A DNA stretch of 64,000 bases from Sympetrum striolatum (taxonomy: Eukaryota; Arthropoda; Insecta; Odonata; Libellulidae). Made by a program: the position numbers and the translations under genes. The notes below the pieces were generated by a model, which was not told the DNA's origin, searched no databases, and saw nothing but the letters and a program-made list of their open reading frames with translations. The stretch covers positions 36,822,216 through 36,886,215 of the forward strand of contig OX388352.1 of the NCBI GenBank assembly GCA_947579665.1, written 5' to 3'. Of the stretch, positions 25,561 through 59,007 are shown piece by piece (the stretch's first letter is position 1; each line of letters begins with the position of its first letter).

Positions 25561-26368
25561 AGTACTGCTGTTTAATTAATAAACGCCTCAATTAGTCCTT
25601 CCTAAATGCAGGTCGTTACGATTGTCTGCGTAAAATTTATTTCTAAAGATTTATTTATTTACTTCGTAAAATTTATTTTTTAAGACATTATTATATTATA
25701 TTTTTCTAAAGAAATAATTATATTTTAGAAATGAATTTATCGCAGTTTAAAACTCCGGTGGAACAAACTTTTAGGGCCGTATTTATAGTCGACTTCCAGG
25801 AGATCCGCAGCGCCTAGCAGTCCCCCAAGGCCAAAAACGGTATTTATAGTCCTCTTTCTCCCCCTTACAACCCCCTTAGAGACTCGCAAGCTGTGAAAAG
25901 CTGGGTAACCGAGATAGGTGATCCAGCGAACCCCTAAGGCGTGATATCGGTGGTGGCAGAACTGCGTACTAATTTTGTAAACATCAAACATGGTGGACAA
26001 TCAGTTCGAATCGTTCGATTAGATTCAACAATTGATGAAAAAAATTAAATAGTGGACTGTCAAATCCTCAACGTTTCTTTGAATTAGTGTACAAATCAGC
26101 AGAATATTTTCGGTAGATATTTATTTTATCCTAATGCATTTAAAACTATCTAACGGATGTTTTAAAACCTCAGCTTGTGCAGTCGTTAAGAAATGTGAAG
26201 TTATTAGTTTTATTAGGTAAAATATTGATTTCCTTTAGGTTGAGTTTATTGGCAATTACAATACTTATTAGTAGAGATATATTTATGCTGTGCAAGGGTG
26301 ATTCCTACTCGTGATTGCTGATTCTTTGTGGTCTTTCGTTGTCGTAGTCGTGATATGTAACCTTTGAC

Positions 26369-27597
26369 GCAGATGTCTACCATGGAGAAAGAGTAAATAT
26401 TTACAGTGGAAAGCTACAAGGGTCAGTATTAGGCCTATTGCTATTTTTAATATATATCAATGATATATTTTCTGTTATAAAGTGCTGTAAATTATACTTG
26501 TTTACTGACGACGCTGTATTAATATATATTCACAAACACTTCAATGAGGCTAAAAGAGCTCTGCAAACTGACTTGAATAACATTAATAAGTGGTGCCATG
26601 ATAACAAATTAAAACTAAATGTTCACAAGACAAAAGTGATGAAAATTAGATTTAGAGAAGAAATAAATCATAAAGTGAAACCTCTACAATACCTACACAC
26701 TTACATCCAGCTTGCAGAAAATTACTTCTCCAGTAAGCACAAGGAAAAGTTTGCTACAAAACATGGCATGATAGGGAGAGATAGAATAACGTTTAATTCT
26801 ACCAAGTTATTATAATATATGTACGGCAGGAAGTGACTTGATGTCAAAATACCTATGTTATTTAATGACTTACCTAATAACATACACTTAAGAAATGCTA
26901 TGTCTAACGTAAAGAAAGAAATCAAAAAATATTTGCTTAAACATTTTGTACTGAATTTCGAAGAACATATAACAGATCCCTTAGTAGATACTATGATATA
27001 TGTCAAAATTGTATTGAGTTGGCTTTGTATATTTATTGCTCTAACTATGGGATGCTAATGATTGTATCTAAGTTTATATCTGCTGTTGTACTTTGTGTTT
27101 TTATATAAATATATATAATGCTTTCTATAGTCTTGTGTGTTACATACTTGGTATATGTTTATTGTGAATCATTATATAATTGCTGAATTTGATATTGATT
27201 TTCATATTATAATAAGTGCAATAGATAAGTATATGCAGTATTTACAATTTTTGGAATCATAGGTAGTATTTTGTGATAGTTTTTGTAATCTTCATGCTTT
27301 ATTTTGCTAGAAACGTATGAAATTGTTTTTAATATTCATCATTAATTTATGAAATATTCCAAATTTTAAATAATTTGTAATCTTAGGCTTTGATGAGCCT
27401 ATATCTGGCTCAAGAGTACCAAAAAGATGAATATTTACAATCCTGTTTCTTGAAATTAAATGTCATGCAAATTAATTTGTAAGCCGTTCACAGGCAGGCG
27501 ATATTATTTACATTGCATTATTGTATTGTTTGAACAAAACAATACAACAAAAGAATAATAACAAACAATTTTTCTGAATAAAATATTCTATTCTAAT
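26369..27597 (+). pseudogene. LINE reverse transcriptase (fingers/palm to C-terminus) and 3' UTR, nested in the Harbinger-like element
   Basis: One frame from about 26,369 reads GERVNIYSGKLQGSVLG, then LLLFLIYINDIF, LFTDDAVLI and WCHDNKLKLNVHKTKVM. These are the PQGSVLGPLLF, YINDI, F-A-D-D and N-x-x-K-T motifs of LINE reverse transcriptases. The catalytic box is FTDD rather than FADD, and PQG is LQG. After a break the C-terminus (LFNDLPNNIHLRNAMS ... KKYLLKHF) continues at about 26,855-26,950. The tail ends in ctgaataaaatattctattc near 27,597, a polyadenylation-like 3' end. It is truncated upstream of the palm and has frameshifts, so it is inactive. Confidence 0.8.
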
Positions 27598-29400: not shown

Positions 29401-29480
29401 TCTTTTAGAGGATCTCTTTCCCCCTGCCATACGCCTCTGGCGGCTCGCGAGGTATACATAAAAAAAATCTAAATCTAAAG
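29401..29480 (+). mobile_element. LINE 3' tail (CR1/L2-like), first copy
   Basis: Contains ccccctgccatacgcctctg, ggcggctcgcg and a gaggtata signal followed by an A-rich tail (aaaaaaatctaaatctaaag). The same 3' end closes the LINE at 29,483-29,965, so two 3' ends lie in tandem. Confidence 0.7.
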
Positions 29481-29482
29481 AA

Positions 29483-29965
29483 ATGGCTTACTTTTCTCTT
29501 ATTCGTCCGAGTCTAGGATACTGCTGTGCGTTTTGGGACCCACACGAAGTAGGTTTAGACTCAGATTTAGAGATGGTCCAGCGTAGAGCAGCCCGATTCG
29601 TTTGCGGGGATTTCAGGTTTGATAGCAGCATTACGGCAATGATAGGGTCCCTCGGTTGGAATTCACTGCAGATGAGAAGATCTGAATATCGTCGGAAACT
29701 TTTCGAAAAGTTCATTTGTTCGGAATTTATAGACGAAGTAAGTGAAATGTTAGTGCCAGTAAGGAGCGAACGCGATCTCCGAGTGGCATCGACGAAGCGT
29801 TATAGAGAAGTAATTTCAAGGACGGATAATTATTTTTGGTCGTTTTTTCCCCAGGCTATTAGAGATGCTAATAGGGAGGAATGAATAATGGGGGTGTAGT
29901 TCACCCCCTGCCATACGCCTCTGGCGGCTCGCGGGGTATAAATCTAAATCTAAAATCTAAAAATC
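29483..29965 (+). pseudogene. CR1/L2-like LINE, C-terminal end of reverse-transcriptase ORF plus 3' UTR
   Basis: An uninterrupted frame of 133 codons (29,483-29,884) reads LIRPSLGYCCAFWDPHEV, MVQRRAARFVCGDFRFDS and LGWNSLQMRR. This is the post-polymerase region of CR1/L2/Jockey-type proteins (LVRP.LEYA..VWDPH ... VQRRAARFV ... LGW.SL..RR). The stop is followed by a short 3' UTR with ccccctgccatacgcctctg and ggctcgcggggtata, and the tail aatctaaatctaaaatctaa. The body upstream of the thumb is missing, so this is a 5'-truncated copy. It is the least damaged LINE end here, hence probably young. Confidence 0.8.
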
Positions 29966-31350: not shown

Positions 31351-32373
31351 AAAAATAATTGCGTCAACCGTTTTTAATTCCTCCTTACATTGTCAACATT
31401 TGTCAATTTATAGTTTTGGTTCTTTGACTATATAATTTTTGGTAGTTTAGAGCGTTGATAGTCTAATATTTTTAGATTATTATTATTATTAATACATAAA
31501 TAGATAATAAACGAGTCAATGCTTAGCACAATACAGAGATCATGCTAATTCATTACAATGAAATATAAGAAAATGAATTACAAATTTATAACTAAATGAA
31601 TATGAAAAATATAACCAGTACAAATTCATGTGGACATATATTCATGTATGATTGTTGCTAATTTTTTGTATTGCCTAATATAAATTATTCAACTTTTCCC
31701 AGCACCTACTACTCCAATCCGAAAACATATTGAAAATATCCTGAAATTCACCCTCTTTCAATGGCCAAACCGTCGCCAATTCGTCGCTTGGAATTCATGC
31801 TCGTTGTCTAATGTTCCATAAGAAAAGTTCCTCGAACTCAAAGTTATCTAACCTTGGGCACCCTTTCCTAAACGTGTTCATTTTGGGCCTGCATATAGCA
31901 TAACGAGTGAGGCTTTCTTACTCATGCTGACACAACCATTATCCTTACCTAGAGGCTATTTACGAGAGAGTATACCGTTATGCAGCCTTTCTTTGGCCTG
32001 GCAATTTTTCAAAATGTCTCCTAAGAGGGTATGTCCTAATCACTAGATTACAACATTGCGTGGAGTGACGAAGATAATGAGTCTGAGGAAGAGCTCCTAT
32101 ATTGAGTAAGGTAGGGTGAGCGACTGTGTTTCTATTGGCTGAACTAACTAAGCGGAAACCAATGGATGCGTCCTGCGAAGTTTTATCTTAGGTTCGAAAT
32201 TACCTTAGAGAATTCAAAAAGCATACACCGATATTCCTCGAGACAGTGTTCTTCGTATATTTACAGGCGTATATTTCGGTGTGACCTCCTCATTTTCTGC
32301 TGCTCGCTACATTTTTCGCGTATTGGTGCTTTTTGTATATTTGTGCATTGTCTATTCACCTATCATACATTTC
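31351..32373. other. Interval upstream of the spliced gene; possible minus-strand coding fossil
   Basis: On the minus strand, about 31,950 down to 31,660 can be read with only two stops. It includes RPKMNTFRKGCPRLDNFE and WPLKEGEFQDIFNMFSDW. It could be the end of another retroelement protein, but I do not recognise a family. On the plus strand, ATTGG at 32,134-32,138 and CCAAT at 32,159-32,163 could be promoter elements for the gene starting at 32,542. A short open frame (32,166-32,402) would be an upstream ORF if transcription begins there. Confidence 0.3.
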
Positions 32374-32475
32374 GTACCGTTGTGAATTTAGTGCCGTTGT
32401 GAATTTAGTGCCGTTGTGAATTTGGTGCCGTTGTGAATTTGGTGCCGTAGTGCATTTGGCGCCGTTGTGAATTTT
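32374..32475. repeat. 17-bp minisatellite, six copies
   Basis: The unit gtgccgttgtgaattt(a/g) is repeated six times head to tail with one to three changes per copy. It ends 66 bp before the start codon of the spliced gene and so probably lies in its promoter or 5' UTR. Confidence 0.9.
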
Positions 32476-32541
32476 GTTGTGCTGTGCTTTATGTGCATCG
32501 CCTGTATTTATTCTTCGGTATCTCTGTGAGGTACATCCGTT

Positions 32542-33101
32542 ATGAGTGCAGCATCTGGGTTTAAGCTGGTGGTCGAAATTCTCGACCACCTGACAAAAAA
32601 CGAAGAACCAGTGTTTGAGATTACACGCCGGTTCAACAAGTACATGAAAATGGTAATCCGGGTCTCCAGGAAGTGTAGAGAAGATAGGCAGAATAGGAAA
32701 AGGCGTCTGAAGGAGGAAGAAGAGGTTGAAAAGAAAAGAAGGTTTGAAAAAGAAATCGCAGACACGGTTAACTTTCTTGAAAACCTCAGTGATTGGGGTG
32801 ATGGTAAGCTATGTGATTGCTTAATATGATAATCGTATTACTGCTTAAATCGAATTTCCACCAAAATATTGAAAAGCGATTCTTTTTAATTGCATTGTAA
32901 ATAGATGAGGAATTGGATTTGGATGCGGGGCCAGCGTCCGGTGAAGATGGACGTACGGCGGCTTCAATGCAAGGTAAGATAAATATTTTGACTATGAATT
33001 TCAACGTATTGCTGTGTCGTATGTATGGTTAGGTGTTTTACTCTTACGGTATTTTTTTAGACGCAGAACCATCTGCAGCAGTGGCGTCAACCTCAAGTTA
33101 A
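32542..33101 (+). CDS. Intact three-exon gene, 123 aa, basic coiled-coil protein with acidic tail; function unknown
   Basis: Exons are 32,542-32,803, 32,905-32,973 and 33,061-33,101. Both introns (101 and 87 bp) are GT-AG, with donors gtaagc and gtaaga and acceptors tgtaaatag and atttttttag; both split a codon after its first base. Splicing keeps one frame through to TAA. If intron 1 is read through, the frame stops after 95 codons. The first 60 residues look helical (ILDHLTK, then FNKYMKMVIRVSRKCRE). Residues 47-70 are strongly charged (RQNRKRRLKEEEEVEKKRR), a likely coiled coil with a bipartite nuclear-localisation-like basic run. The exon 1/2 junction begins an acidic stretch (DDEELDLD), and the end is rich in Ala and Ser. 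There is no signal peptide, membrane segment or zinc site. I do not recognise the family. It may be a host gene or an accessory protein of a DNA transposon. Every splice element is intact, unlike all other coding relics in this window. Confidence 0.6.
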
Positions 33102-33199
33102 GATGGGCCTGCTACAGTTGGTCCCATATAAATCTGTACAGTGAAGGAGAGAGGGTAATTTACTAAATATCCGACAGCATATTAAAAAAACGACGCAAA

Positions 33200-33205
33200 T
33201 AAACG
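33200..33205 (+). promoter_or_regulatory. Polyadenylation signal AATAAA
   Basis: AATAAA lies 99 bp after the stop of the spliced gene, within a short untranslated region. It fits a 3' end just downstream but is also a common word in AT-rich DNA. Confidence 0.4.
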
Positions 33206-33556
33206 GATAATGGTCACCACTGTTAGAGAATTTCCTTGGTGGGATCAACGATGATTTAATTTGTTATGATGAGGGCTAAAGAGGGCTCCTCTGCTATTAC
33301 GAAGCTCATGTAAGGAGGACTTATAAATATGCATACAAGTTTGCTTTTAGAGGTTTCTAAAGTGTTTATGAAAAGTGCTTGGGAAGTGGAAGGAATTAAG
33401 ATTAGCAGTGGAAAGAGTGATGTTATTTTGAAAATTAAAAAGATAGGGTCGTAAGTGACAGGCACTTTTAATGTAAATTTGCAGATCAGAAATCCAATTT
33501 GTTGTACTTTCGACCACATATTTGTTACAAAGACTGAACAAAGTAAAGACTTTTCT

Positions 33557-33616
33557 TTACCTAAAATAGCCAGTAAATTTGATGTTTTACCTAAAATAGC
33601 CAGTAAATTTGATGTG
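33557..33616. repeat. Two exact 30-bp tandem copies
   Basis: ttacctaaaatagccagtaa plus ten further bases is repeated once, exactly or nearly so. This implies a very recent slippage or duplication event. Confidence 0.85.
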
Positions 33617-33817
33617 TATGTCATTATTATTATTTATTGATTCGGGTAGTTATTTATTGTATTGATTTATTTTAAAGTCACTATTATTTGCTATATTTAC
33701 TTTATACTCATTTTATTTTAAACCAAGCAGATACAATCGATGTGTTTTAGCCTTACTTGATGGAAAGCCGTAGAGAAAGAAATAAAAATAGTATGTAGTT
33801 TCCTGAAAATATTTTTT

Positions 33818-33855
33818 GCGCCAACTGGTTTCGACTGGTTCCAGTCATCTTTAGG
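33818..33855 (-). ncRNA. Hammerhead-ribozyme-like core (PLE/retrozyme type), degenerate
   Basis: On the minus strand a CCTAAAGATGA segment is followed by the hairpin CTGGAACCAG, then TCGAAAC and CAGT. This has the order of a minimal hammerhead: conserved CUGAUGA, stem II, GAAA, then the GUC-type cleavage side. Here CUGAUGA is imperfect (AAGATGA) and GTC reads AGT. Hammerheads of this minimal form occur in terminal repeats of Penelope-like elements and retrozymes. I infer a decayed copy, probably inactive. Confidence 0.4.
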
Positions 33856-33859
33856 AATT

Positions 33860-35849
33860 TCATTAATTTATGTCTAATTTTCTTTTTTATTTCTTCCTCG
33901 TTTATAAGAAACAGTTTATAAATATTTTCCCTGTTTTTATTGTACAATTTATTGTTAATATCGTGTTTGCCTTATATTTATCAATGTTTCCTAGCCTCCG
34001 ATGGAACGAGGAGAGGGAAGAGAAGAAATCTATTTGAATGCATCATTTCATTGAATTTGTAAAATGTTGTCATTTGTTATCGGTTTATGTAATATTATCT
34101 TGTTCATTTTTTCCCTACGATGTTTATGTAAATAATTATTGGTTTTAAGAATATACTTACATTATTTCAATTTTGAATTTTTATCTGTATCTTGTCATTC
34201 TCGTTGATCGCTTCTTTCACAATGAGTGGTAAGATAATTGTTGATGAAAACCTTATAAACTCGTTGAATACAGTAGTTGACCTTAAATACAAGAGCTTAA
34301 TCGATGTTACTTAGAATTCCATTCGATCCAGTCGAAATTAAGGGTGATCGTAAAGTGAAATTTCATCATGAGTATCCCAATTTTTGAGAATTTTCAAACT
34401 ATCCCATAAATCATCAGTTGGCCTTATCTCGACGATTTAATGATGACAACTGAATCCTCAAAAATGATATTGTTTACAAATGGGGACATAATAGAAATTT
34501 AAAATTTATAGCGCAAAAATTTGTTCATCAGGGTAAGGGGTGCAGGGATATTTCTTTGAACTTTCACTGCATTGTATATTTCAAAAACACTTTTTTTAAA
34601 GACTTATTCTATCTAGCATTGCAGATCTCTCTTGGAAATGCCTTATTCATTCGAGAAGTGAATTCGAAACCACACGGAATTAATCGAATTGAATTAAATT
34701 TCATTGAATTAAAACAGGATTTCTTTTAATTATACACACTAATTCGATACTTGAATTATTGGTGTTGCTTGTGATTGTTAACACGCTGTGAGTAATAGCT
34801 ACGCAAGAAATATGTTATAACATATGTCACGAAATCTCTATTTAACAATGAAAATAAATCTAATACTAGAATATTATAAATTGATGGACAATAAGTTTTA
34901 CATTAATAACTACTAATTTCATTTTTTATATTTATTGGCTTTAAAATTGACAAATTAGGGAATCATCAGGTGTGGCTTAGAAAGAAGAATATTAAAGAGA
35001 GCTGGAGGGAAGTTATTATAAGTGAGGCGGGAGATAACTTGAGGCATTAATATAAATTATGACTATCAAGAAATTAATATAATCCAATAGCTTCGTCCCA
35101 ATTTAGCAGTAGCTTTCCATTGTACAGACTAATAGACACTTCCACCATTACCACGGAATATAATTAAACGACCATGGTGAAGGTAGTAGTGTTTTTCCAT
35201 TAGACTTCAGAAGCTACTAATAATGATAGCAGTTATTTGCATTCATGGCAATTCATCATTAGCAACGGGAAACAATTATTTTGAAGGCTTACTCTGCCAC
35301 AATATGTGTCGTGTGCATAAAAATGGTGGAGTGTTAGAGAAAGGAGTTATGGCAAACTGTTAACTAGATAGTTGATAATATGCTCTGAAGAATCTCTCAT
35401 AGCTCTCCTCTTAAAAGACTAGATATATGAATATATTTATTTGGGATGAAAGAGTTAATTTCTTTATATATCACATTCAGATGGGATTCAATATCAGGGC
35501 GATTAATGAGAAAGAATTGAATTCCGGTGGCCAGAGTTCTTCGTTGGATGCAGTGTGCGGTATCGGCACTATCTTGCCCCATTATGCAATTGAAAGAAAA
35601 GGCGCGCCTTAGAGACGATGTAAATAAATCCCATCTGAATGGGGATATTGAAAAAACTTGAGTTTGGTTACCGTTTAAATGACTTGGGACTGGACGCACT
35701 GGGAACATTATTTTTTGGTTAAATTTTGACAAGAACTGTTCTCGCCTTTTTTCCGCGCTTTTCTGTCGTGGCGGGAACTACCGGGTCTTTTCTAAACAGT
35801 TGTTTGGAAACTATCGTTTGTTCAAAATAATCTCTACCCCGAGTCTTAG
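33860..35849. other. AT-rich interval; 15-bp inverted repeat
   Basis: cattcagatgggatt (35,474-35,488) and its exact inverse (35,627-35,641) flank 138 bp. Open frames across this area (111 codons minus, 61 codons plus) overlap on opposite strands and show no known domain. Nothing else is supported. Confidence 0.4.
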
Positions 35850-41750: not shown

Positions 41751-43083
41751 CGGTGTTTACGAGTTCTCTACATTCATGAATTCCTTAGGCGTACGCATGA
41801 CATATTTTTAAGGAGAGCAAGAGAAAGATTAGCGATAGCTGGCAACCACGATTCGCGTAATCCCTCCCTGGGAGGGAATTACAGATTCTATTTCCGACAG
41901 TAAGAAGGGGAAATTTAAATTTCATGGTAAATTTCCATTTTCCAAGGGTTCAATCTGTATCACAGTAAACACTCTGTAATGGGAATGGCTCCCTTGCACA
42001 TCTTCTTCAACTATTCGTTACTAGTATCTTTTGGGTTTCGAGGGATCAGAATGAAATTTGAGTATATTCGTACTATTCCTCTCTCTAGTCGAGTCTATTA
42101 CACTTGAATATGAATGTTGATATCAACGAAACATATTGCATTAGCAAATTCTGTGGGAGAGTACAAGTGATACTTTTCCATTGCTATGGCCTTCCAAAAA
42201 GTAATGCCTTTGCATATTGAGTTTATCAAGGGCAAAAAAGTTTAGGAAAACATAATGCAAGTTTTATTTTCACTCGCTTCGAAGACAATCGTCTAAATCC
42301 CAAAAATTGTTTTGAACATGACACTGAAATGACGGGTTATAAATCTTGATTCTCAAAATATTGAATTGAATTTAATTTTGTTCAACAAAATTGAATAATA
42401 ATCATAAATATTGTATGCATGTATAGGGTGAAGAAACTTATGTTATTTTACTTTCGTAAAGTAACTTTCATTACTTTATTTCATATTGAATATATTTATA
42501 AACTCGAATATGAAGTTGTAAAGTTATTTGTAATTTTGCAACATAGTTTCCTATATTGAGTTGAATTTGTTAAAAAAATGAGGAGTCAGTTACCCTAAGC
42601 AGGATATTTTGCTAAGAGGAACCTATATCCCTTGTTTCAATTTTTGTAATATTTACATATGTTTGAGCTGAAATTGATATTCACTACGAAAGTAAGATTA
42701 GATATTACGCATATTCCACACGAAATCCATTTCGATGAGGCCATGGAAATTGTGCACCAGCAGTTCCACATTCCTCTAATTTCACGTAAGGTACGCAACT
42801 CACTGACCTTTCCATTCCAACAGAAACTCAATTAGTCCCGTATTCAATTTCGCAGAAAATAACTCCAATTTGCCGATGTTTTACCACCTGATCAGATTTT
42901 CCACGCAGTAGGGTTCAGGGGAGATGGAATGGAAGAGAGAATTTTGCAGGCAATTCTCAATTTCCTGTTTTCTCCCCCTCGGGAAGTACGGTCTCATCCT
43001 TCAGCCTGCATCGCAAATAAGCTCCTGTGACCTTCTCGAATACTGCGTAACAATGAGTACGTTGAATCTAATTTTATTGTCCT
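41751..43083. other. No recognised gene upstream of the tandem array
   Basis: AT-rich, broken in all frames. A palindromic gtaatccctccctgggaggg-aattac word lies near 41,857. Part of 42,920-42,960 weakly resembles 44,170-44,210 of the array unit. Confidence 0.3.
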
Positions 43084-46000
43084 TATCATAATACGGCTCC
43101 TTTAAGACAAACCAAACAGAATTAAATTCATCGCTTATTCTGTTGGAGAGATGATGTTTACATTCTCCTTCAAGTTTAAATTGTTTAATAATAATATATC
43201 ATAGTAAAAATAAATTTCAGCTGGTAAAATCCCTCGGCATTGCAGAGAGAGATTTTTTAGAATAATGAAAATAAAAAATTCTGCCTGCAAATTTATGTAA
43301 ATTTTTAAAATACACATTTAGGCTGAAAAAGTATATAATATCGAAGAAAATCTCATATAGCTATATTCTGACCATGTTTGTGTTACTCACTGGATAATGT
43401 CGATTGACATCCTATAAAAATGAATGATTTCTATGCAAATAATACAAAAGGCTACAAACGCAGGAACATAAACTTGGGAGTTTTTAAAATTTTAAGTGGC
43501 GCCATCTTGCGAAGATTGACTGAAAACTGTTTCCATCGCTAATAATCGTCAATTACGTCTTTGTTTTAAGAAGCATCGCCTAAAATGAATCCTTTCGCGA
43601 CATTTCGTCTTCAAACTGTGCATCTTGCTCAGTTTATTATCATCAGACACTCGAAAAATTCAGCATTACCTAGATAAGTAATATGCAAGTTGAAAGTTGT
43701 ATTCTGGATGTGGAAATAGCAAAAATACTCTTTCCGCAGTATAGATCCAATCATATTGACGTCTTTGTTAGAACCCTGTAAAACAACTTTCGACATGTGG
43801 CAGGGAGTGCAGGCCCCTTGAGCCTATTTTCCTAATTGACTGCCTTTGCCTTTAAATGAATGAATTCTTAAAACTATTCGTTCTAGCATGTATTACTCGG
43901 ATCTTACTCCCGGTTTAGTGAAAATAAAAATTAAATGATTTCGAAAAATAAGGAGTAAGCGAAAACTTTAGGGTATTTTAGGATTAAAGGTGGTATGAGA
44001 AACAGATTCGTAGGTTATGTATCACTCCGTTGATCAATGTATGATGAATTCCGTGAGAACCTGAGACGCATTTAGTTTGGAAATTTTATTCAGGGTTATT
44101 GGAAGCTTAGGATTCTACACTCGTTTGGTTATCTTCCTTCATTTGTTGCTGATTCATTGCTATAACCAGAGAGATGGAATAGAAAGAAAGATCTTGCCCG
44201 TCATTTTAGATACAGTATAATGAGTGGATTCAAGTATAACAGTAACACACCTGTTTTTTCATTTTATTGTTTTTCCTCTTGTCTTTGGTCTTGTTGTATT
44301 AAGGGTCGCGATTACTGGTGTAAACTTTAAATTTTTTGAGTAATTTTGAATGTAGTTACTTAGATAAATTAAATCAGTACCAAGGAGGACGTTCAAGGCG
44401 TCCAACATTTCTCACTTCGAGCTTTACTCTAACCCTGCTAAATAATATATGTTAACGCATGGGTGAGTCTTCACTACACTCAATAGGTATGCTCGAAGAT
44501 CTAACGTTCTGCAAATACTTGTATTGTAAAATTTAATTTGGTCACCGACCATTCGTCACGTATCGATCTTTACAGCATGGATAGATTTGTCTGCATTTCT
44601 TAAGCAGCTTTAAAATGAGATATTTTAATTAGTTTCTAGAAAAAAAGACGTTTTCACTAAGGATCATTGCTGTGAATTCTGAAGAGCTGTTTACCTCTTT
44701 CTGTTACGATATCTTACATTGCCTTCCTATTAGTTTACTTGCCTTACTTGTTAAGTAAGATATATAAATCTTTCATTGCCTCACAGCAAAACTTATAGCG
44801 TACATGAATTTTTAGTTTTGAATTCAGTGATAAGCGAAAGGGTTGTAATAATTAGGTATGAAGCAGTGAGATATGAGTCAAGTGGTAAGAACGTTGACAT
44901 CTGTTCGTTGGTGGAGAAGAATTAAGTATTCATATTCATTTAATTTCCTGCACTTATGTTTGATATGAAGCATGTTGCGGGTAAAATCATACGAATATTT
45001 GGCAAAGATGAGGTGTTTTGAGGTGTGTGATTTAAAGGAGTCCGAAGTAAATAATTACGTATCTTCCTTTATACGGATCTCAAAATGATTTCCCGTTTGT
45101 CTTATATAGATACTGAGAAATCAGAACAACGTAATTCATTAACAAATGATTTTTTACTGGGAAACTTATTATCTACTTAATTACTGAGAAAACGCTTGGG
45201 GTGAAATTTGAAAAAGGCATCCTTTATATTATTTTAAAGCAACGATCTTGATATTTGTCCAGAGATGATAGGATCAGGACAAGAACTAGCGGGGAAGACA
45301 GCATGCATCGCAAGCTTCCTTTGTTTATTCCCAAACATTTTGTCTATAATGTACGCGGGGCAGCTGTTCTTTTCGGTGATGAAATAATTAATTTATAATT
45401 CCTTGCGGAAATTTTCTGGAAAAATGGGATATTTACGAGTCTGTTAAACAGAGAGAGGAAGAGAAGGCGTTTTGAGATTAGTGATTATTGTTTTTTCATG
45501 CTAAGCTATCGGTCTATAACACTGCAGAGAAAATAACGAAAAATTAGCGTATACAAGTATTTCGATCCTTGAAATTTATTTTACGTCCGAAAATTTACTT
45601 TCATATTTTACCTGGAATACGTATAAATACAATAAAGGTTTTATCGAGAAACTAAACCTGTAATTAGCTTTTTACCTAGACCAGAACGCTCTCAATACTG
45701 AGATCCATTTATGTACCCGATTCATTCATTAAGATTCCGTATTTTAACAACAGGGTTGAGTGCGATATAATTTCATTAAACAAATTGCTATCAAACTGTT
45801 TTTTTAGAAACGCATTCTCTACAAACACACGATAATGGAAATGATAACAATTTCCAATGGAATAAATCACTGTGTCAGACGTACTTACCTGTAAAAAGAC
45901 AAAATGTTCTTGAAATTAGTACGTATTTAAGGCGTAATTGGTGGTTCATTGTATGCAAATGTTTCTAATTTACGATTCATGCTAGCAATAACCTTAAAAA

Positions 46001-46747
46001 TGGGAGGCGCAGTCAAGATGTAAAGCTGTTTATTATCACGTGAATGTAATTGATTTTAATTTTTCTAGTTTGGAATAATTTTGTTTTGTCATATACATTA
46101 GCACATACATTGCATTTGTTGAAAACTCAACACGGTTTGTATCCTTGCTAACTCTCAGCCAACTTTTCCTGTAACGTTAGTCTGGAGCCCGTTGCCATGG
46201 AGATTTTGAAAATCTATACCACTCCTTCCGCTCCGCTTCTGTTCCAAGGCAGACAAATGTGATCATAATCCGAAATTAATTTACTGCGCAGAAACATTTC
46301 AGAAACCGAGAGAAAGGAGTGTCTCAATGGTCTTATATTTTGCCAACGTTCCGTAGAAGAATTTGTGCCATCAAATGTGATTCGAGAGAAATATACTGTA
46401 GCTACCATATGCTCGCCCGATATCTCATGTATTGGTTCGCGAAAGTTCGTAATTCTTCGTGTATTGGTACTGATGTTCTATTAAATGATCAGCATGATAG
46501 TTTGGGTCACTTACTCTTTGATGGATTACATAATCTGTAAATCTAAGCTGAGGAGTTAGAGCAACTGATAGAGAATCATAACTTAATGATAATAAATCTG
46601 TTGTTTTGTAGATTGTGATCTTGAATCCTTATTAATTAAGGATCAGAATATTCCGTGTTTAGAGATATGTAAGTTTGATAAGAGGGCATTGTTACACAAA
46701 TAGAAGCATTTCATTTGTAAGGGTTTGAATGATCTGTTTATATTAAC
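43084..46747 (+). repeat. Tandem macro-repeat, unit U1 (about 3.66 kb)
   Basis: The anchor ttattctgttggagagatga occurs at 43,135, again at 46,791, and as ttattctgttggagggatgc at 63,620. Landmarks follow in the same order in U1 and U2: gaattctgcctg-aaattta, aagaaaatga/ctca, tcgcctaaaa-gaatcc, gaggagtaag-gaa, gtgataagcgaaa, ttccttgg/cggaaattttc, cttttcctgtaacgttagtc, attggttcgcgaaagttcgt. By eye the units are about 70-75% identical. No ORF is conserved between units, so this appears to be non-coding tandem DNA or a tandem duplication of a large element. It includes a LINE-derived piece (about 43,610-43,905) that U2 lacks. Confidence 0.75.
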
Positions 46748-47595
46748 ACTGCTTCTTTTACGACAAGTATAATATAAATACTTTCATCGGTTATTCTGTT
46801 GGAGAGATGATTTGCACATTTTTCTTCTAGTTACTCTTATTGTAATAATAATATAACATAGTAAAAATAAAGTTCAAATGCATAGTTAAAAGTAGTCATC
46901 AGTAAAACCTCTAAAAAAATTTTAGAATTTTTAAATCTAGGAATTCTGCCTGTAAATTTATGTATTTTTTAAACTTCACATTTTTGCTGAAGCGGTAGAT
47001 AATATCGAAGAAAATGACATCTATCTATTTACCATGTATGGTTTACGTACTATAAAATTTCGTTATTACTCCAATGATAATAAATGATTTCTATCATGTA
47101 TATTAAACAAAGGCTACAAATGCAAGGAAACCAATTTAAAGTTTTAAAAAGTTTCAATAGCACCATGCAGCGCAGATTGACTTAAAACGACTTCCATCTC
47201 TAAGAATGGTGGGTTATCGCCTAAAACGAATCCTCTATTACGAATATGTCTATAGAATTACCCTGCAATCCGCATCTATCATATATCTCCGATTTTCCTC
47301 GCAGTATGACTAACATAAAAAGCAAATGATTTTAAATGATGAGGAGTAAGTGAATGGTTTTGGATATTTCTGGTTTAAAGGTCATCAGAGTAACCTATAA
47401 GGGGATTCGATATCCTTTCATTGATCAATTTATGTTGTATACCGTGAGAAAACGAGACGCGTTAAATTTGGGAAGTTTTATCTAGGGTAACTTGAGGTTA
47501 TAGGAGTTTTTTTACCCTTTTTATTAGGCAGCTCCTAGATTCTTCTTTAATTCATTCTCATCACATTTCAGTATGTTTTCAATTATTTTATTTTT

Positions 47596-47737
47596 ACTTT
47601 CTCCATATACGAAGTATAGAGAAAGTATTGTTTTCATGAAAAAATTCGGCTTCGAGATTTCAACGGAAATACATGTTTTGGGGTCCCTAGAACACGTTTT
47701 GACTATTTTCGGAATGATGTCTGTGTGTATGTGTGTG

Positions 47738-47770
<33 letters not shown>

Positions 47771-48628
47771 CTGTATGTGTGTGTGTGTTTGTGGGCGCTC
47801 TAACGTAAAAACTATTTGTCGTATCAATACCATACTTAGTATATAGTACTGTGATGTGTGCTGTCAGAGTTGATCAGTTTTTGGAGTAAATCGGTTGACC
47901 GGAAGTCGAGCTTCATTCATCAAAGCTCATTTCCGGTTTTCAAAATATCTCCATAAATGTGTTATATACGTGTATTGTATTACTAATAAAAGTTTTAGAT
48001 AATGAAATTTACTATAACTTTTGTATTTAACATATTTTTATATCACCGGTTGATTAGGAGTTATTCGTGAAATACCGATAAACCGGAAGTAGCTGTTATG
48101 TACTTTGTGGGCGCTCTAACATGAAAACCGTTCATTGTATCAACACTAAATTTCATATATAGTATTTTTAGTGGTTAGTTTTTTTAGAGTTGATTAGTTT
48201 TTGGAGTAAATCGGTTAACCGGAAGTTGAGCTTCATTCATCAAAGCTCATTTCCGGTTTTCAAAATATCTCCAAAAATATGATATTTAGGTAAATACTAT
48301 TATTTGTAAAAGTTTTAAAAAATGTAATTTACTATAACTTTTAGTTGAATCATATTTTTGTATCACTGATTGTGTAGGAGTTATTCATGAAATACTGATA
48401 AACCGGAAGATGCTGATTATGTACTTTGTGGGCGCTCTGGGCTCTATGGGCGAAACGCCAATTTCATCGTTTTTCATCGATCATGTCCCGTAAAACATTA
48501 TTTATCATGTTTTTGGGGTCAAAGATAATATATAATATTAATCACTCATATTCCAAGTTTAGATGGAATATAGAGTTCGAAATTACTGAGGTGGATAAAT
48601 ATTTACATCTTATATATATGGAGAAAGT
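47596..48628 (+). mobile_element. ACTTTCTCC element, copy 1
   Basis: Starts with a 31-bp hairpin (actttctccatatacgaag ... agagaaagt) and ends with tatatatggagaaagt, giving terminal inverted repeats actttctccatata/tatatggagaaagt. Similarity between copies extends about 20 bp further into catgtgctggccacatcaga. Inside are a (GT)n tract (about 47,719-47,790) and a direct repeat of about 317 bp that starts at each gtgggcgctct (47,791, 48,108, 48,427) and contains ccggaagt and its inverse acttccgg-type words. There is no transposase. The first 70 codons form an incidental frame broken up by the GT tract. Superfamily unknown. Confidence 0.7.
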
Positions 48629-49034
48629 CATGTGCTGGCCACATCAGATTTTTTACTTTGTAAATTACGTATTATTAGTGCTAATCTGGAAAAAATGTTT
48701 TGTTGACGGTGATACGGGGAATCTAAGCCCAACCATTTAAGTGTTAGCTTGAAAGTAAATTAAGTGCATTATATCAGGAGATATCTTCAAATTGTGAGGA
48801 GAACAGTAAATCATATTATGTTTATGTTGAAAGACGCAGTAATTTTAAAACCCCGGTCGATCCCCAGTTATTTCCGACACTAAGAATTCACGGTAATTCT
48901 CCGTTTTCATTGAAGTTTAAAAGACATTATGCAAGAACAGCAGTTTTGAAAGTGATGGTAGAAGATTTTTCGCACCATTTCGCACGAAATTTTGCATCCT
49001 GGAACGTTTAAAATGTATATTTTATATTTTTATT

Positions 49035-49713
49035 ACTTTCTCCCTATACGTAGTATAGAGAAAGTATTGTATTCGCAAAAAAATTCGACCTCCAGATTTC
49101 GACGGAAATGGATATTTTGGGGCCCATTGAGCTTGTTTTCGCTATTTTCCTGAACATGTCTGTCTGTGTGTGTCTGTCTGTGATAAAAAGGTTTGTGGGC
49201 GCTCTATCCTAAAAAGCAATTATCCGATTATCTCCAAAATCCACATTTAGTATATTCCTAATAATGCCAAGAGTTGGTTTATTTTTGATAAATATAGCTT
49301 AACCGGAAGTTCCGGTTTAACCGGAACCAAATTTTGTTTCTTATATATCTCTGTCAGAATACAATTTAGGTATATACAATTATTTACCTATATTATTATA
49401 CCTTATTACTAAAACCTATAGATAATGTACTTAGCTACAACTTTTATATGAAACATTTTTTCGTAGCATTGATTGTTTAGAAGTTATTCTTGAATAATGG
49501 TTAACCGGAAGTTGATGTTTATCCAGAAATGGAAGTTTTTCATACATATCTCTGTCAGAATGCAATGTAGGTATATACAATTGTGTACCAAAGTTATAGT
49601 TAATGTATTTTACTATATTTTTGTATGAAACATTTTCCTGTAACACTTATTGTTTTGGAGTTATTTATATATTACTGACATAGGCTTCTGTTTTCAATAA
49701 ATATGGAGAAAGT
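49035..49713 (+). mobile_element. ACTTTCTCC element, copy 2 (short form)
   Basis: Same terminal hairpin (actttctccctatacgtag ... agagaaagt), the same following segment with aaaaaattcgacctccagat, a gtgggcgctct motif, four ccggaagt-type words and the same end (atatggagaaagtcatgtg, tggccacatcag). The interior differs in sequence and is only 679 bp long, so it represents a different subfamily from copies 1 and 3. Confidence 0.7.
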
Positions 49714-50079
49714 CATGTGTTGGCCACATCAGATGTTTTGCTATTTTACATGCTGCAAGTAAAATGTTTTCACGTGGCAGCCCCAACCATTGTCTATGCA
49801 CAACGTAAATGAAACAAATATTGCAATAATAAAATATACATACACATTGACAGTATTCAAATTGAAATTTCCCCGGTACCCTTACCAACATGCATCGTCT
49901 AAATACAAAAACCACATTTTACACTTTGCAATGCTACTTTTTAGGCCAAAATATCACTATATCGTTTTCACATCGTCTCGTTTAAAATTATCCAAAAAAT
50001 ACTAAACTCGACAATATTCAATCCACTTTATTATATAAACTAAAGAATCAACTTTTAATTTCATGTATATTTTTTGGTA

Positions 50080-52000: not shown

Positions 52001-53017
52001 AATGGAGTGGTGGGTGGAGGGAGAGGAAAAGATGCCAGTGATAAGCGAAAAGGTTGCAACAAACGGGTATGAAGAGGAAAGAGACGACTCATATGGTAGG
52101 AACGTTGCTTTGGGTGGTGAGGAAGACAGAATGGGATTGAAAAATGAGTTTGATAGCCGAGAAGAATTTAATTGTTCAAATTAATTTAATTTTTTGCTTT
52201 TACGTTCGATGTGAACTATTTTGGGATAAAGTCGGACGATGGATTGGCAACGATGAAGTGTTTTGCGATGTGTGAATTGAAGGAGTACGAAGTAAATGAT
52301 GATTTTTGTTCTTTAAAATGGATCTCGAAATTTATCTGTTTTTTCTATATTGATAATGGGCAATAAAACAACGTAATTTATTAATAACTGATATTTAAGG
52401 GAGAATAATGATCGTTTTTTTCACAGTGAAAAGGTTTGAGAGTAGAATTTATAGAAGACATCCTTAATATTATTTCAAAGCATCAGTCTCGTTATTTGGT
52501 TGTTTAAATTGTCAATAAAAGGAAAACTCGTCTAGAAAATGGGATCAGAAGAAGAACTAGTGGAGAAGACTGACTGAATCGTGAACTTTCTTTGTTTGTT
52601 TCCAAGCATTTTGTCTATAACGTATAAGAGATACCTGCTCTTGTTGTCTAGATATGATTAATGTGTAATTCCTTGGGGTAATTTTCAGGAAATAATTGGG
52701 TCTCTAATAGCATTTAAGAAAAGAGTGGAAAGAGGTAAACTATTGAGAAGGGTGATGATTTGAGGAAGCAGCAATTACATAATTTGTATATGTGGGCTTT
52801 ATGAAGATCATTTTTTTAGTACATATATAGATTTTTATTTCATTATAACAAAATCACCAGCTACAATCTTTATTATACCCTGATATGGACAAGTTAACGT
52901 TACTTCTGTGTTATTTTCAAAACTAAGTTTTATTTAAGAATTTTAAGTTATGTTGGTAATCCACTAAAAACAAGTTACGACCTCCTCCTTGTATCTCCTT
53001 CAGATATTTTTGATATA

Positions 53018-53064
53018 ATTGATCCTTGAAAATGGCAGCAGTGGTTGCTGTCGAAACGTCGGAG
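53018..53064 (+). ncRNA. Hammerhead-ribozyme-like core of a Penelope-like terminal repeat
   Basis: The string ggcagcagtggttgctgtc forms a stem-loop (ggcagc / gctgtc) followed directly by gaaacgtcgg. This is stem II, GAAA and the GUC side of a minimal hammerhead, preceded by ccttgaaaat where CUGAUGA is expected. I recall the words around cagcagtggttgctgtcgaa from PLE ends in insects. The catalytic CUGAUGA box is mutated, so this copy should not cleave. It sits in about 1.1 kb that unit U1 lacks. Confidence 0.5.
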
Positions 53065-55134
53065 CTATCCAACACATTGACCCGGTTGAGAACCCAAGAA
53101 AAGTTCCTGAGCATTTTTGATATCCTTAGAGAATATTTTACACTACGATTAAAAATTTAAAGAATACTCCCAATTTTAAAATTCTTAAATTGCTGCTCCA
53201 TAGATATAAAGGAGAGGATCGTGATCAACCTTAGCACAGAATCCTATTTCCTATAGCAAAAGCGAGAAATCAGCTTAGATATCCCATGACATCTGGGGTT
53301 TCCGACTTTCACATTGTTTTATAACCTGATAGTGGAACCAATAGCATACCAACATTTATAAATGAATTCTTCCCATGATTTTCCGCCTTCATTAGGGCCA
53401 TAATCGCTTGATATAATTCTCTGGACAAGAGAGCGTTTTGAAGAGGAGAATCTGAATCTGAGGACGGATTTCCATAAATTCGGTAAGAAATCTTATGTTC
53501 AAACATATTAAACTACTTCTTTTCAATATATAAATATAACACATTTATCGCGACTGCCCGTGTAACAGAAGATTTTTTGAAAGCTCGTTTGAGAGATATA
53601 CGCCACCGCTACTACAGTTATGTTTGAGAAAATAAAAAAAACTACTGGTTTTAAGTAAACAAGCAGTATTAGGTTGAAAAAATTGTTATTTTTAGTGTTG
53701 CTCATGGATTAAAATATGTTTTCATTGTTAACAATGATTAGGTAGATAAGTTCAAATTTGAACAAAACAAGGAGGCAATAAAAATACAATGAAATACGAT
53801 CCCTGATAATATTACAATAATGTAAATAATAAATATAAGTATTATAAAAATACAATACTTAAAAGAAGGCTAAATTTACTTGATGAATTCCATGGAAGTG
53901 AAGTATTTATTCTCAGATGGTATTCCCCTCCGATTGATTACTTTTAACGAACTACTATACAAATAGATTCTTTAGAATTAAATCTCTTCACAAATATGAT
54001 CAGTAGAAAGGAGAAATATTTCCAACGGAAAAATCACGATTTTATGCAGACTCACCTGTTTTTAACAGAATGTGAAATGACAAACAGTTCTTGCACTTAA
54101 TACCGATGTAAAGCGTAAACGGTGGTTCTTCTATAACACATGTTTCTAATTTACGAGTTAAATTCCGATAACCTTAAAAATTTAACTTTTCTTCATTATT
54201 TAATACTGCTCATTATTTCCGTGAATGTAATTGATTTTCAATCATCAGCTTGGAATAATGTTGTTTTGTGATATAAATACATTAGGACATACATTGCATT
54301 TGTTGAAAACTCAACCCTGTTGGTATCCTTGCAAACTATCAGACAACTTTTCCTGTAACGTTAGTCTGGAGCCCGTTTCCATGGAGATTTATAAAATCCA
54401 TACTGCTGCGTTCCGTGAATGAATGCTCGACATACGCGCATTTTCATCGGAATGATTATTTGGCGCGAAAAGTTATGTTTAGGGTATCTCTTCCGAGATG
54501 GACAAATGTGAGTGAAATCCCAATTTATTTTACTGCGTCCAACGATTTCAGAAACAAAGAGAAAGGAGTGTCACAAGGCATTATTAAAGAAATTTAATAT
54601 GTTCAATCTTCACATCGTGGAAAGGTTTCCAAAACTTTGTGGAAGCTACAAATTTTATTTATTTTAAGATGGCGTTCAAATGTATTTAGCTAACATTCAG
54701 TAAATGCTCGCAGATTCATTACCACAAATGGGCTGGTGCTGTAACATTTGATTCGAGGGAGATATACTGCAACAACCGTATGCGCTCCCGAATTACCTCG
54801 TATTGGTTCGCGAAAGTTCGTAATTCTTCGTTGTTTGGTATTGATTTTCTATGAAGTGCGTCGACAAGTTTGTTTGGGCCTCTCACTCTCGGAATGATTG
54901 CATATTTTTTAAATCAACACGAGTATTCTGATGCCATTTGGTAGATATCCAGTCGGTTCTTACATTGTGTTAACAGATGATCGGTTCAATCTCTTGACCC
55001 AAGCATTAAAACAGAAAATGCTGGAGATGAAATCAATCATATTACATATGGTGACGAGCAATTTACTAACTGTTTTCATACTCACCCAGCCTTAGCTCTC
55101 CTCATCAACCAAAGGGGAAGCATTTATTTTCTGT

Positions 55135-57887
55135 AAAAAAGTCTAGTTCATCGAGTATAGCTTCCCGTAGAGTCCACCGATACTAGTGAAATAAATATCA
55201 GTTGATAGAACATTTCTTTATACATTTATTTATATGCGTTTAGATTATTTACTTGCTATAGATCTACATTTACTGCACTTTGTTTGAAAAAAGTACCCGT
55301 TTTTTGCGCTTGGAGACCGATGGCCCTTTTCTCTTTCTTTCTTTCTCTTTCTCCTTTCTTTCTCTTTCTCGACTTTCTCCGACTGTCACTCAGTTAATTT
55401 TTTCAATAATAATTTACAATTTGAATATGTGTTATTCTAGAATTCTTTCAAAACTTTTGTATAAAATACTGTCGACATATTTCCATTTGTCCTAGCAATG
55501 GACAATGTTGTAAACCTCTGCTAACTTCGAAACTATACATTCGACTGGAATATAAGTTACACCATTGTGATTGCAAGAATAACAGAAATAAGATTTTGTA
55601 AAGAAATATTACTTAAATATGCCAATATCTGCATTATCAATTTTAAATTTATCTACGTCTTACGCTCGCAAAACAGCGTGTTAACACTGCAGGCGGCTAA
55701 GGAGTGTGTGCTCGCCGTTGACAAACGCTATCCTGAATTGATGTTTACTTTCTATCCAATTGGATTTTAAATATCACTAAAAAGCCAAAGCATGCAAAAT
55801 GTACTGTTGAAAAGAAAACGATGGAAAGTTATATTTACCGTGATAAACGTATTTAAACCAAGATACTAAGAAAAGGCCATTCCGCAAGTTTCGGCTTTTT
55901 CGTGATGTATAAAATCCAATAAAAACCTTTTGATTAAATACGTGAACAAGTCCACATTTCTGTGGGTTTGTACACGATTTGCATTCAAAAGTTTTCGTTA
56001 AACATGAAATTCCACCAAATCTCTTTGGACAATTTTCAGTATATAAAATCCAATTGCAACACTCTCCAACAACACGACCATGACGTCGTTCCTGAACCCC
56101 CGAAAATTTCGGTGAATAAATTGCGTAGAAATATGCGTCGAATCTTCTATTGATTCGAAAATTGCGACATCTTATTGAAACCTTTCATTATTAATCTACT
56201 AGTGTGGCATTAGTTTCGTTTTCTGTATTGTTAAATATGGAAAGCCTATTGCAGTAAAAGAAACGTGAGGATCTGGTGGACTTGTAGGAATGAAGATTTG
56301 AGCGTGATAATCAAGACATTGAAAATGTATTAAATACATGGATGCAAGAAGAATAGTTTAGTAATTTGATTAAGGTTTTGTGTTGGTTTGGATTAGATAC
56401 TCGCTTTTTATTTTGTGCATGCTTTCACTCAATCAGATATGGTAATGTATACATAAAAAAATCGAATCAATCAAAGAAACCATAGGCTGAAATCTTAAAA
56501 ACTCCATGAAAGACATATAAGGTAATGTAAAGAAAGGGTACAACAATCCAGGATAGCGTCACCGATAGAGGAGTTACAGAGGTGGAAAAGAGAGGCCAGA
56601 GGAGAGGCCCAGAAAGACGAGGAAGGGGCCAGTGAACAACAAGAGTCCAATAGATGATGTGGAAAATCCAATTGCGACACTCACAAGGCCCTAATCCAAA
56701 CCAACCCAACACATTACTCCAATTACTAAACTACTCTTCTCGCATCCATATATTTAATACATTTTCAATGTCCTGATTAGCACGCTCAAAACTTCATTCC
56801 TACAAGTCCACCAGGTCATCATGTTTCATAGCACTACGCTATCCATAATTAACTATCCCAAAGACGAATGTAATGCCGCAATTACAGATTAATAATGAAA
56901 TGTTTTATCAATTCGACGCTAATTTCAAATCGATTAAAGATTGGACGCAAATTTCGACGCAACTAATTCAACCATCCTTTTTGGGTTCAGGAATGACGAC
57001 ATGTTCGTGTTATTGGAGAGTGTTGCAATTGGATTTTACATAATTAATATTGTCCAAAGAGAACTAATGGAACTTCATGTTAAATAAAAGCTTTTTAATA
57101 AAATACGTGTACAAGTCCTAAAAAATGTGGACTTGTACACGTATTTAATTTAAAAGTGTTTGTTGGATTTTATATATCGCAAAAAAGGCGAAACTACCAA
57201 AAAGAGCCTTTTTTCTTACCTTGGTTAAAGTAATTTTATAACGGTAAACTTAAATTTTGATCGTTTTCTTTCCAACATTTAATTTTATGAGTTTCGGCTC
57301 TTTAGTGATGTTTAAAATCCAATTGCAAAGAAAGAGCACAAAAATCCAGCATTTGGCAACCGCGCGCACACTCTCTTTGCACTTCAGATCCGCTTAATGC
57401 GCTGTTTTGCGATCGTAAAACGTAGATAAATAAAAATTGATAATGTAGATATTGGCATGTTTAAGTAATACTTCTTTTCAAATTCTTATTTTAGTTATTC
57501 TTGCAATTACAACGGTGTAACTCATATTACAATCGAATTTTTTGTTTCGAAGTTAACAGAGGTTTACTAAATTGTCCATTGCTAGTACAAATGGAAATAT
57601 TTCGATATTTACAAAAAATTTGCAAAAATCTTGGCTAACACATACAAATTACAAATTATTACTGTAAATATTAACTGAGTGACAATCGGAGAAAGTTGGT
57701 CCAACGGTTTCCATGCGCAAAAAACGGGTAGGTTTTCAAACAAAATACACCATGACAAGTAAAAGATTTAAACGCATATTAGTAAATGTAGAAATGAATG
57801 TTACATCAGCTGATGTTTATTTCATTAATATCGGTGGACTCTATGGGAAGCTATACCTTCTCAAACTCGTTGGACTAGACCTTTTTT
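55135..57887. repeat. Giant inverted repeat IR1 (arms about 1.2 kb, spacer about 294 bp)
   Basis: The left arm 55,135-56,396 is the inverse of the right arm 56,691-57,887, about 75-80% identical by eye. Outer landmarks are aaaaaagtctagttc and gaactc-gttggactagacctttttt; inner ones are gttggtttggattag and ctaatccaaaccaac. A word around taaaatccaattgcaa recurs inside the arms and in the spacer (near 55,755, 55,908, 56,043, 56,664, 57,022, 57,168 and 57,314). A pyrimidine tract, (ctttt/ctttc)n, lies at about 55,325-55,372. No ORF is conserved between arms. It resembles a foldback-type element or the ends of a long-TIR transposon. The arms are old enough to have diverged. Confidence 0.75.
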
Positions 57888-58104
57888 AGACACAATAGTA
57901 AGGAGTGACAACGAATGGTTTAAATTGGCCAATTGTGGAGAACGACGGTCATCATCATTATATTAACATAACCTTGATTGAGCACAATAAATTGCGTCAG
58001 TGATAGATTATGGATTATTACGTTTTAGAAAATGTTGATAAATTCATGTGACGGTTGGTCCAATGCAGGTAGTAATAATAAAAATCTGATGTGGCCAGCA
58101 CATG

Positions 58105-58958
58105 ACTTTCTCCATATATATAAGATGTAAATATTTATCTACGAAAGTAATTTCGAACTCTATATTCCATCTAAACTTTGAAGATGAGTGATTAATTTAT
58201 ATCATATTATCTTTTACGTCACAAACATTATAAATAATGTTTTTCGGGACACGCTCGATGAAAAACGATGAAATGGCTATTCGCCCACAGCGCCCAGAGC
58301 GCTCATGAAGTACAAAATCGGCAACTTCCGGTTTATCAGTATTTCATGAATATCTCCTAAAAAATCAGTTTTACAAAAATATATTTCAAACAAAAGTTAT
58401 AGCAAAATTTATTTTCTAAAACTATTATAATTAATAGTATATACCTAAATATCATATTTATTGAGATATTTTGAAAACCGGAAATGAGCTTTGAAGAATG
58501 AAGCTCGACTTCCGTTGTACTGATTTGCTCCAAAAACTAATCAACTCTAAACACACCAACCAAAATACTATATATGAAATTTGGTGTTGATCCGACAATT
58601 AATTTTCATGTTAGATCGCCCACAAAGTACATAATAGCTACTTCCGGTTTATCAGTAATTCACGAATAACTTCTAATCAACCGATGATAAAAAAATATGT
58701 TAAATACAAAAGTTATAGTATATCACATTATCTAAAACTTTTATAAGGTACACAATATACCTATCCATCATATTTATGGAGATATTTTGAAAACCGGAAA
58801 TGAGCTTTGATGAAGAAAGCTCGACTTCCGGTCAACCGATTTACTCCAAAAACTAATGAACTCTGACAGCACACAAAACAGTACTATATATGAAGTTTGG
58901 TTTTGATACGACTTATAGTTTTCACGTTAGAGCGCCCATTAGCACACACACACATACA

Positions 58959-59007
<49 letters not shown>

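What the first reader, a model, noticed from the sequence alone, without database searches (positions are those of the whole stretch)
32542..33101. Apparently intact three-exon gene of unknown function among dead transposons
Seen: the only reading frame in 64 kb that has an ATG, two GT-AG introns of typical arthropod size in the same phase, and a stop, all compatible, with a downstream AATAAA. Every other coding trace here is broken. The predicted 123-aa product has a basic, coiled-coil-like core and an acidic, then Ala/Ser-rich tail, and matches no family I know. It could be an orphan host gene, a domesticated transposon protein, or an accessory protein of an unrecognised DNA transposon.
Basis: partly seen in the sequence, partly recalled or inferred. 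Interest (0 to 1): 0.75.

Follow-up and report, generated by a model that had tools for sequence, protein, structure and literature searches.

The report
Leader exons of a dead Polinton
The "mystery gene" is most likely the surviving front end of the DNA-polymerase gene of a dead, gutted virus-like transposon (a Maverick/Polinton), and relatives in the same genome suggest that these elements splice a small helical leader onto their polymerase.

Summary
The reading frame is real, but it is not an intact orphan gene. A protein search of the window's own genome found diverged relatives (19 rows at 18 places, E<=1e-3). Several of the copies I read lie in Maverick/Polinton elements, beside a protein-primed polymerase (PF03175, E 3e-45), a retroviral-type integrase with chromodomain, an adenovirus-type protease or an A32-like ATPase. 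In the window a dead copy of that ATPase (34,177-34,717, E 1e-20) and a scrap of the polymerase palm (about 33,062-33,276, E 4e-4) lie just downstream. Exon 1, donor 32,803, the 69-nt exon 2 and donor 32,973 recur in diverged relatives. Exon 3 and its stop do not: there the homologous reading is polymerase, in another frame. So these are the 5' leader exons of a Polinton polymerase gene, stranded by an internal deletion. In three relatives (L026, L029, L039) the leader's phase-1 donor fits a phase-1 acceptor opening the polymerase frame, which implies a spliced N-terminal leader; similar acceptors precede other frames too, so this is not proof. A vertebrate Maverick survey saw no introns in intact elements, so this variant is worth testing. 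No transcript evidence was available.

The parts
32060..32190 (+). Promoter-like block with an inverted CCAAT box (32,134-32,138) and a CCAAT box (32,159-32,163), shared with relatives
   Evidence: DNA match of 70 bp at 74-76% to L026-L029; alignment A2 of 6 sequences; GGAAA(N)CCAAT lies 388 nt before the ATG here and in L026/L027, 386 in L029, 239-293 in L030-L034
32369..32474 (+). 17-bp tandem array, 6.2 copies, upstream of the ATG; role unknown
   Evidence: Tandem Repeats Finder
32542..32803 (+). Exon 1: 87-residue helical leader module, basic with an acidic end; ends at a phase-1 donor
   Evidence: relatives at 34-54% identity; alignment A1; donor at the matching place in L026, L027, L033B, L034, L038, L039, L040 (GTAAG) and L029-L032 (GTTAG), absent in L033A
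32804..32904 (+). Intron 1, 101 nt
   Evidence: Intron of 95-97 nt in L029-L031 and 102 nt in L033B at the same place
32905..32973 (+). Exon 2: 69 nt, phase 1-1, acidic linker (DEELDLDAGPASGEDGRTAASMQ)
   Evidence: A 69-nt phase-1/1 exon at the same offset in L029, L030, L031 and L033B; chance 2-10 of 2,000 simulations in the five copies that have it; absent in 7 of 12 copies examined
33061..33101 (+).
   Evidence: Overlaps the polymerase remnant, whose frame differs
33062..33276 (+). Remnant of the pPolB palm around motif C, in two frames and with a stop
   Evidence: tblastn E 4.4e-4; 1.6e-6 in the local region, 0 of 300 shuffled queries as good
34177..34717 (+). Dead copy of the A32-like ATPase gene of the relatives, spread over three frames with in-frame stops
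   Evidence: tblastn E 1.2e-20 to 1.6e-20

Best explanation
[quoted passage not shown] In better-preserved relatives the order is: CCAAT-type promoter block, leader exon(s) with phase-1 introns, polymerase frame, then ATPase. The leader would be spliced onto the polymerase as an N-terminal tail: a long charged helix, then acidic linkers, in some copies with a SUMO-interacting-like motif. Inferred role: it brings the polymerase and its primer-protein domain into the nucleus or to nuclear replication sites, and is not needed for catalysis. In the window a deletion brought the leader next to the C-terminal palm and removed most of the polymerase; the third exon and stop are by-products. Shown: homology, gene order, shared splice signals, broken downstream genes. 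Inferred: splicing itself, the leader's function, the exact deletion point.
For: Own-genome protein search: 21 rows at E<=1e-3, 2 of them this gene itself, leaving 19 rows at 18 places; 12 of the 19 have no internal stop. Neighbours: PF03175 E 3.4e-45 in L035, whose frame continues that of L026; integrase core E 1.3e-11 and chromodomain E 3.3e-8 in L036, next to L027; adenovirus endoprotease PF00770, 28.2 bits against a cut-off of 21.3, in L040; ATPase frames in L027, L034 and L036. The window carries the same ATPase, dead, 1.1 kb downstream, a palm scrap between, and the promoter block at the same distance as L026 and L027. Exon 1 donor and 69-nt exon 2 shared. In L026, L029 and L039 the leader's phase-1 donor fits a phase-1 acceptor (CAG|AA) opening the polymerase N-terminal frame; in L029 that frame is tied to L026 by 80% DNA identity, in L039 by eye only.
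Against: No RNA. The acceptor scan also listed in-phase acceptors before other frames: ATPase in L034, protease in L040, polymerase C-terminus in L027, an acidic frame in L030, so the L026/L029/L039 fit is not specific by itself. In L034 polymerase pieces lie upstream of the leader. The polymerase scrap in the window is short; the further C-terminal match (about 33,296-33,547) is no better than shuffled queries (E 0.007 only under sensitive settings). The ATPase frames hit Pfam A32 only below cut-off (E 0.038-0.047). The 69-nt exon 2 was found in 5 of 12 leader copies examined, this one included (L028, L033A and L037 not included). Unspliced, the leader frame closes within 9 codons past the donor, so a separate small protein is possible.
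Confidence: 0.75

Rival explanations
1. The leader is a separate small Polinton gene (accessory protein) upstream of the polymerase, not part of it.
For: Unspliced frames close soon after the donor in all 11 copies located, this one included; the modules are duplicated in tandem (L029-L032 within one frame, L033A/B) as stand-alone units might be; in-phase acceptors are not limited to the polymerase.
Against: The donor after the acidic end of exon 1 is kept in most lineages read, and phase-1 acceptors in frame with the polymerase occur in L026, L029 and L039.
Confidence: 0.2
2. A host-domesticated leader: the window copy is kept and expressed as a small nuclear protein.
For: Exons 1-2 are open while the ATPase and polymerase beside them are broken; the only DNA match in the genome is itself; divergence is largely synonymous, ratio 0.15-0.27 in the 6 of 9 comparisons where measurable.
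Against: Those ratios are near saturation and mostly reflect selection in live Polintons (L026-L034 gives 0.06); 331 coding bases without a lesion can be luck; no natural third exon.
Confidence: 0.08
3. An orphan host gene unrelated to transposons.
For: No relative in the protein collection; best three-exon locus of the window.
Against: Paralogues beside Polinton genes and Polinton remnants next door.
Confidence: 0.02
4. A relic of ribosomal protein eS24 (C-terminal half).
For: Best PDB match, E 0.018-0.04; pair score 73 against 25.7 +/- 4.5 for shuffles, 0 of 5,000 as high.
Against: Pfam Ribosomal_S24e not hit at E<=10; the profile of ten family members finds no eS24 at E<=1.
Confidence: 0.01

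Closest known systems
Maverick/Polinton self-synthesising DNA transposons
   Same: Relatives carry pPolB, RVE integrase with chromodomain, a C5-type protease and an A32-like ATPase (in different copies); in L027/L036 a polymerase C-terminus is followed by ATPase and integrase on one strand
   Different: Predicted leader exons with phase-1 introns before the polymerase; a vertebrate survey states that no introns were observed in intact elements (PMC8097293, passages seen)
Polinton pPolB with terminal-protein (D1) and vOTU-like (D2) domains (PMC11071308; abstract, passages and section 6 seen)
   Same: The relatives' polymerase has a long N-terminal region before the exonuclease, in the expected place; the two domains themselves were not tested here
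   Different: The helical leader lies N-terminal to that region in a separate exon; the passages seen describe D1 and D2 only
Internally deleted, probably non-autonomous Maverick copies
   Same: L027 and L028 also lack most of the polymerase between leader and C-terminus and keep the ATPase
   Different: The window copy has another break point, is decayed, and has no second copy at DNA level

Membership tests
Maverick/Polinton | Protein-primed family B DNA polymerase | tested here: met
   In relatives: L035 PF03175 E 3.4e-45. In the window only a scrap, E 4.4e-4
Maverick/Polinton | Retroviral-type integrase | tested here: met
   In relative L036: rve E 1.3e-11, Chromo E 3.3e-8. In the window no match below E 4
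Maverick/Polinton | A32/FtsK-like packaging ATPase | tested here: inconclusive
   Frame with a Walker-A-like stretch (recalled motif) in L027/L034; Pfam A32 below cut-off, E 0.038-0.047. Window copy of that gene E 1e-20
Maverick/Polinton | Adenovirus/Ulp1-type cysteine protease | tested here: met
   In relative L040: PF00770 28.2 bits, cut-off 21.3. Not searched for in the window
Maverick/Polinton | Capsid proteins | tested here: inconclusive
   L036:2540-3199 and 616-1494 had no Pfam match; the rest of the elements was not fetched
[quoted passage not shown]
   One weak candidate only around the window remnant; element ends not determined in relatives
Maverick/Polinton | Intronless genes (reported for vertebrate elements; a trait, not a definition) | tested here: inconclusive
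   Phase-1 introns predicted in the leader of L026, L029, L030, L031, L033B, L039, L040 and the window; no RNA
Ribosomal protein eS24 | Pfam Ribosomal_S24e profile | tested here: not met
   No match at E<=10; family profile finds no eS24 at E<=1

The most novel reading that the evidence does not exclude
Polintons of this lineage make a spliced polymerase whose N-terminal leader is a new domain (long helix plus acidic exons with SUMO-interacting motifs) that steers primer protein and polymerase to nuclear SUMO bodies; and the window copy, which lost the polymerase but kept the leader, is retained by the host as a decoy that jams this step.
Probability: 0.06. Interest if true: 0.75.

Novelty: new variant of a known kind. 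Interest (0 to 1): 0.42.

Why it matters
The window object is a fossil, but it led to a family of leader modules that the protein collection and Pfam searches used here did not recognise. If the splicing is confirmed, Polinton polymerases can carry an exon-encoded N-terminal tail beyond the reported terminal-protein and vOTU-like domains; annotations that start at the long open frame would miss it, and intron-free gene models would need revision. It also shows how a stranded 5' end of a mobile element can pass for an intact orphan gene.

Tried and rejected
Orphan host gene: rejected. eS24 relic: looked strong pairwise but vanished with a family profile. Enclosing small DNA transposon: nothing worth following. 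Third exon at 33,351-33,454 (best score): no protein relative. RNA families: none at the gathering score in the window; 10 chance-level hits near the gene at E<=10. Viral and prokaryotic contig scans with the exon-1 peptide, and a viral scan with the family alignment: pattern matches (2, 80 and 33 stretches) but no confirmed relative; viral scan for the tandem array: 0. Foldseek on the 94-aa model: 0 matches. A coding score without composition correction put a GC-richer stretch near 38-39 kb first and was replaced. The protein collection seems poor in eukaryotes (control with a probable LINE fragment: 20 hits, 19 without a name), so its silence says little. GC segmentation: BIC preferred a single segment; the exon-intron GC contrast alone ranks 325 of 126,800 slid positions. 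Papers seen in passages but not used: PMC10821953, PMC12721341.

Full report
1. The observation. The frame, splice signals and stop are at the stated coordinates. Both donors are among the strongest of the + strand (22nd and 4th of 3,218 GT sites), and exon 1 has a marked codon-position bias (top 0.19% of 2,125 stretches). In 220 kb of the same genome (22 stretches) 14 loci scored 35 or more; most of the 12 printed look like transposon proteins by eye. Acceptor 33,067 scores higher than 33,061.

2. First searches. In the protein collection 21 and 19 candidates shared words but none scored (E<=1, E<=10). Pfam, PHROGs and NCBIfam gave nothing below E 0.05. Viral and prokaryotic contigs gave no relative. 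A weak eS24 match was lost with a family profile. For the gene and its upstream region the only DNA match in the 1.35-Gb genome is itself; the tool warns that this does not prove rarity.

3. The turning point. A protein search of the window's own genome gave 50 rows at E<=10. Of 21 rows at E<=1e-3, 2 are the gene itself (exons 1 and 2) and 19 are other rows at 18 places (one row is a second module in the L032 frame), 34-54% identical; 12 of the 19 have no stop. An alignment of ten modules has five invariant columns (K8, E21, T28, Y34, M37 of the window copy).

4. Where the relatives lie. Around L027, L032, L034 and L026 are ATPase frames and polymerase-like frames. Two neighbouring 3-kb pieces gave PF03175 (L035, E 3.4e-45) and an integrase core (E 1.3e-11) with chromodomain (E 3.3e-8) (L036); L040 has an adenovirus-type endoprotease 0.7 kb beyond the leader (E 1.8e-6). 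These are Maverick/Polintons. For L030, L031, L033, L037 and L038 the fetched pieces show no recognised Polinton gene; L030 and L031 share DNA with L029 and L032. Capsid genes and element ends were not established.

5. The window again. Downstream lies a dead copy of the ATPase gene (34,177-34,717; E 1.2e-20; three frames, in-frame stops). Between, 33,062-33,276 matches the polymerase palm around motif C (E 4.4e-4 against window plus 20 kb, E 1.6e-6 locally, 0 of 300 shuffled queries as good, 51 other stretches no better than 0.053). The match uses a frame other than that of exon 3, so exon 3 and its stop are not original. A further C-terminal match was not significant. The other Polinton frames tried (three from L036) gave nothing below E 0.7 in the window. 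A CCAAT-containing block lies 388 nt before the ATG, as in L026 and L027. The remnant thus spans about 32,060-34,717 and has lost most of the polymerase. L027 and L028 show a similar deletion with another break point.

6. Exons 1 and 2 are shared. A GTAAG donor follows the acidic end of exon 1 in the window, L026, L027, L033B, L034, L038, L039 and L040; L029-L032 have GTTAG; in L033A the site reads ATAAG, without GT (dropped because its peptide was not found). A 69-nt phase-1/1 exon 95-102 nt further on is found in the window, L029, L030, L031 and L033B, 5 of 12 copies examined, with a chance of 2-10 in 2,000 each; L029-L031 are one close clade, so this is three diverged lineages. L039 has a 66-nt and a 78-nt exon instead, L040 a 99-nt one, L026 a 162-nt one.

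7. What the leader does. In L026, L029 and L039 the leader's phase-1 donor fits a phase-1 acceptor that opens the polymerase frame; the L026 frame continues into that of L035 on the same contig. The same scan also lists in-phase acceptors before ATPase (L034), protease (L040) and other frames, so the fit alone is not specific. The likeliest product is still a polymerase with an N-terminal leader. The leader is predicted as helical: two helices, 4-19 and 24-86, for the 94-aa frame (pLDDT 83, pTM 0.46), one helix 3-86 with ten sequences (pLDDT 85, pTM 0.44). Middle exons in L026, L030 and L039 hold a short hydrophobic run followed by acids (IIPVIDIASDSDDDD, IIEVITLSDEEEE, VPLLIDITNDDD); L029 and L040 have a hydrophobic run with fewer acids. 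These resemble SUMO-interacting motifs as I recall them; no tool tested that. Nuclear steering is inference. The window copy has no such exon left.

8. Against known work. The 2024 preprint PMC11071308 (abstract, passages and section 6 seen) describes a terminal-protein domain and a vOTU-like domain N-terminal to the polymerase in polintons. The vertebrate survey PMC8097293 (passages seen) states that no introns were observed in intact elements. Four searches (listed 9 of 9, 15 of 35, 10 of 29 and 4 of 4 papers) showed no title or abstract beginning on a spliced Polinton polymerase leader; most subscription papers are not held, so this is not proof of absence.

9. Verdict. The window object is ordinary; the leader family is a modest, testable novelty.

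Noticed in passing
L027 (C49:87.03 Mb) and L028 (C11:13.73 Mb): Two copies 99.2% identical over 3.3 kb lack most of the polymerase but keep leader and ATPase: perhaps a non-autonomous Maverick that spread recently.
   Followed up: partly
L037/L038 (C26:51.958 and 51.966 Mb); also rows C1:78.630 and 78.639 Mb: The leader module lies in inverted arms 99.9% identical over at least 1.8 kb, 7.7 kb apart; a second pair of opposite-strand matches lies 8.7 kb apart. Possibly long terminal inverted repeats or inverted copies.
   Followed up: partly
L029-L032, L033: The module is duplicated in tandem within one 191-192-aa frame (L029-L032) or as neighbouring copies (L033A, L033B).
   Followed up: partly
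window 32568-32590: A 9-bp perfect inverted repeat with a 5-nt loop inside the coding exon (seen in the alignment and the sequence).
   Followed up: no
window 33556-33615: Perfect 30-bp tandem duplication, so probably recent.
   Followed up: no
window 26354-26812: Reverse transcriptase fragment, RVT_1 E 4.9e-11.
   Followed up: no
window 29462-29881: Frame with relatives of up to 70% identity, 19 of 20 unnamed, probably a LINE end; 45-bp near-repeats at 29420 and 29904 flank it.
   Followed up: no
window 43083-49742, 52036-54915, 55125-60246, 62142-64000: Several repeats shared within the window at about 66-96% identity, some inverted; the finding's own stretch is in none of those listed.
   Followed up: no
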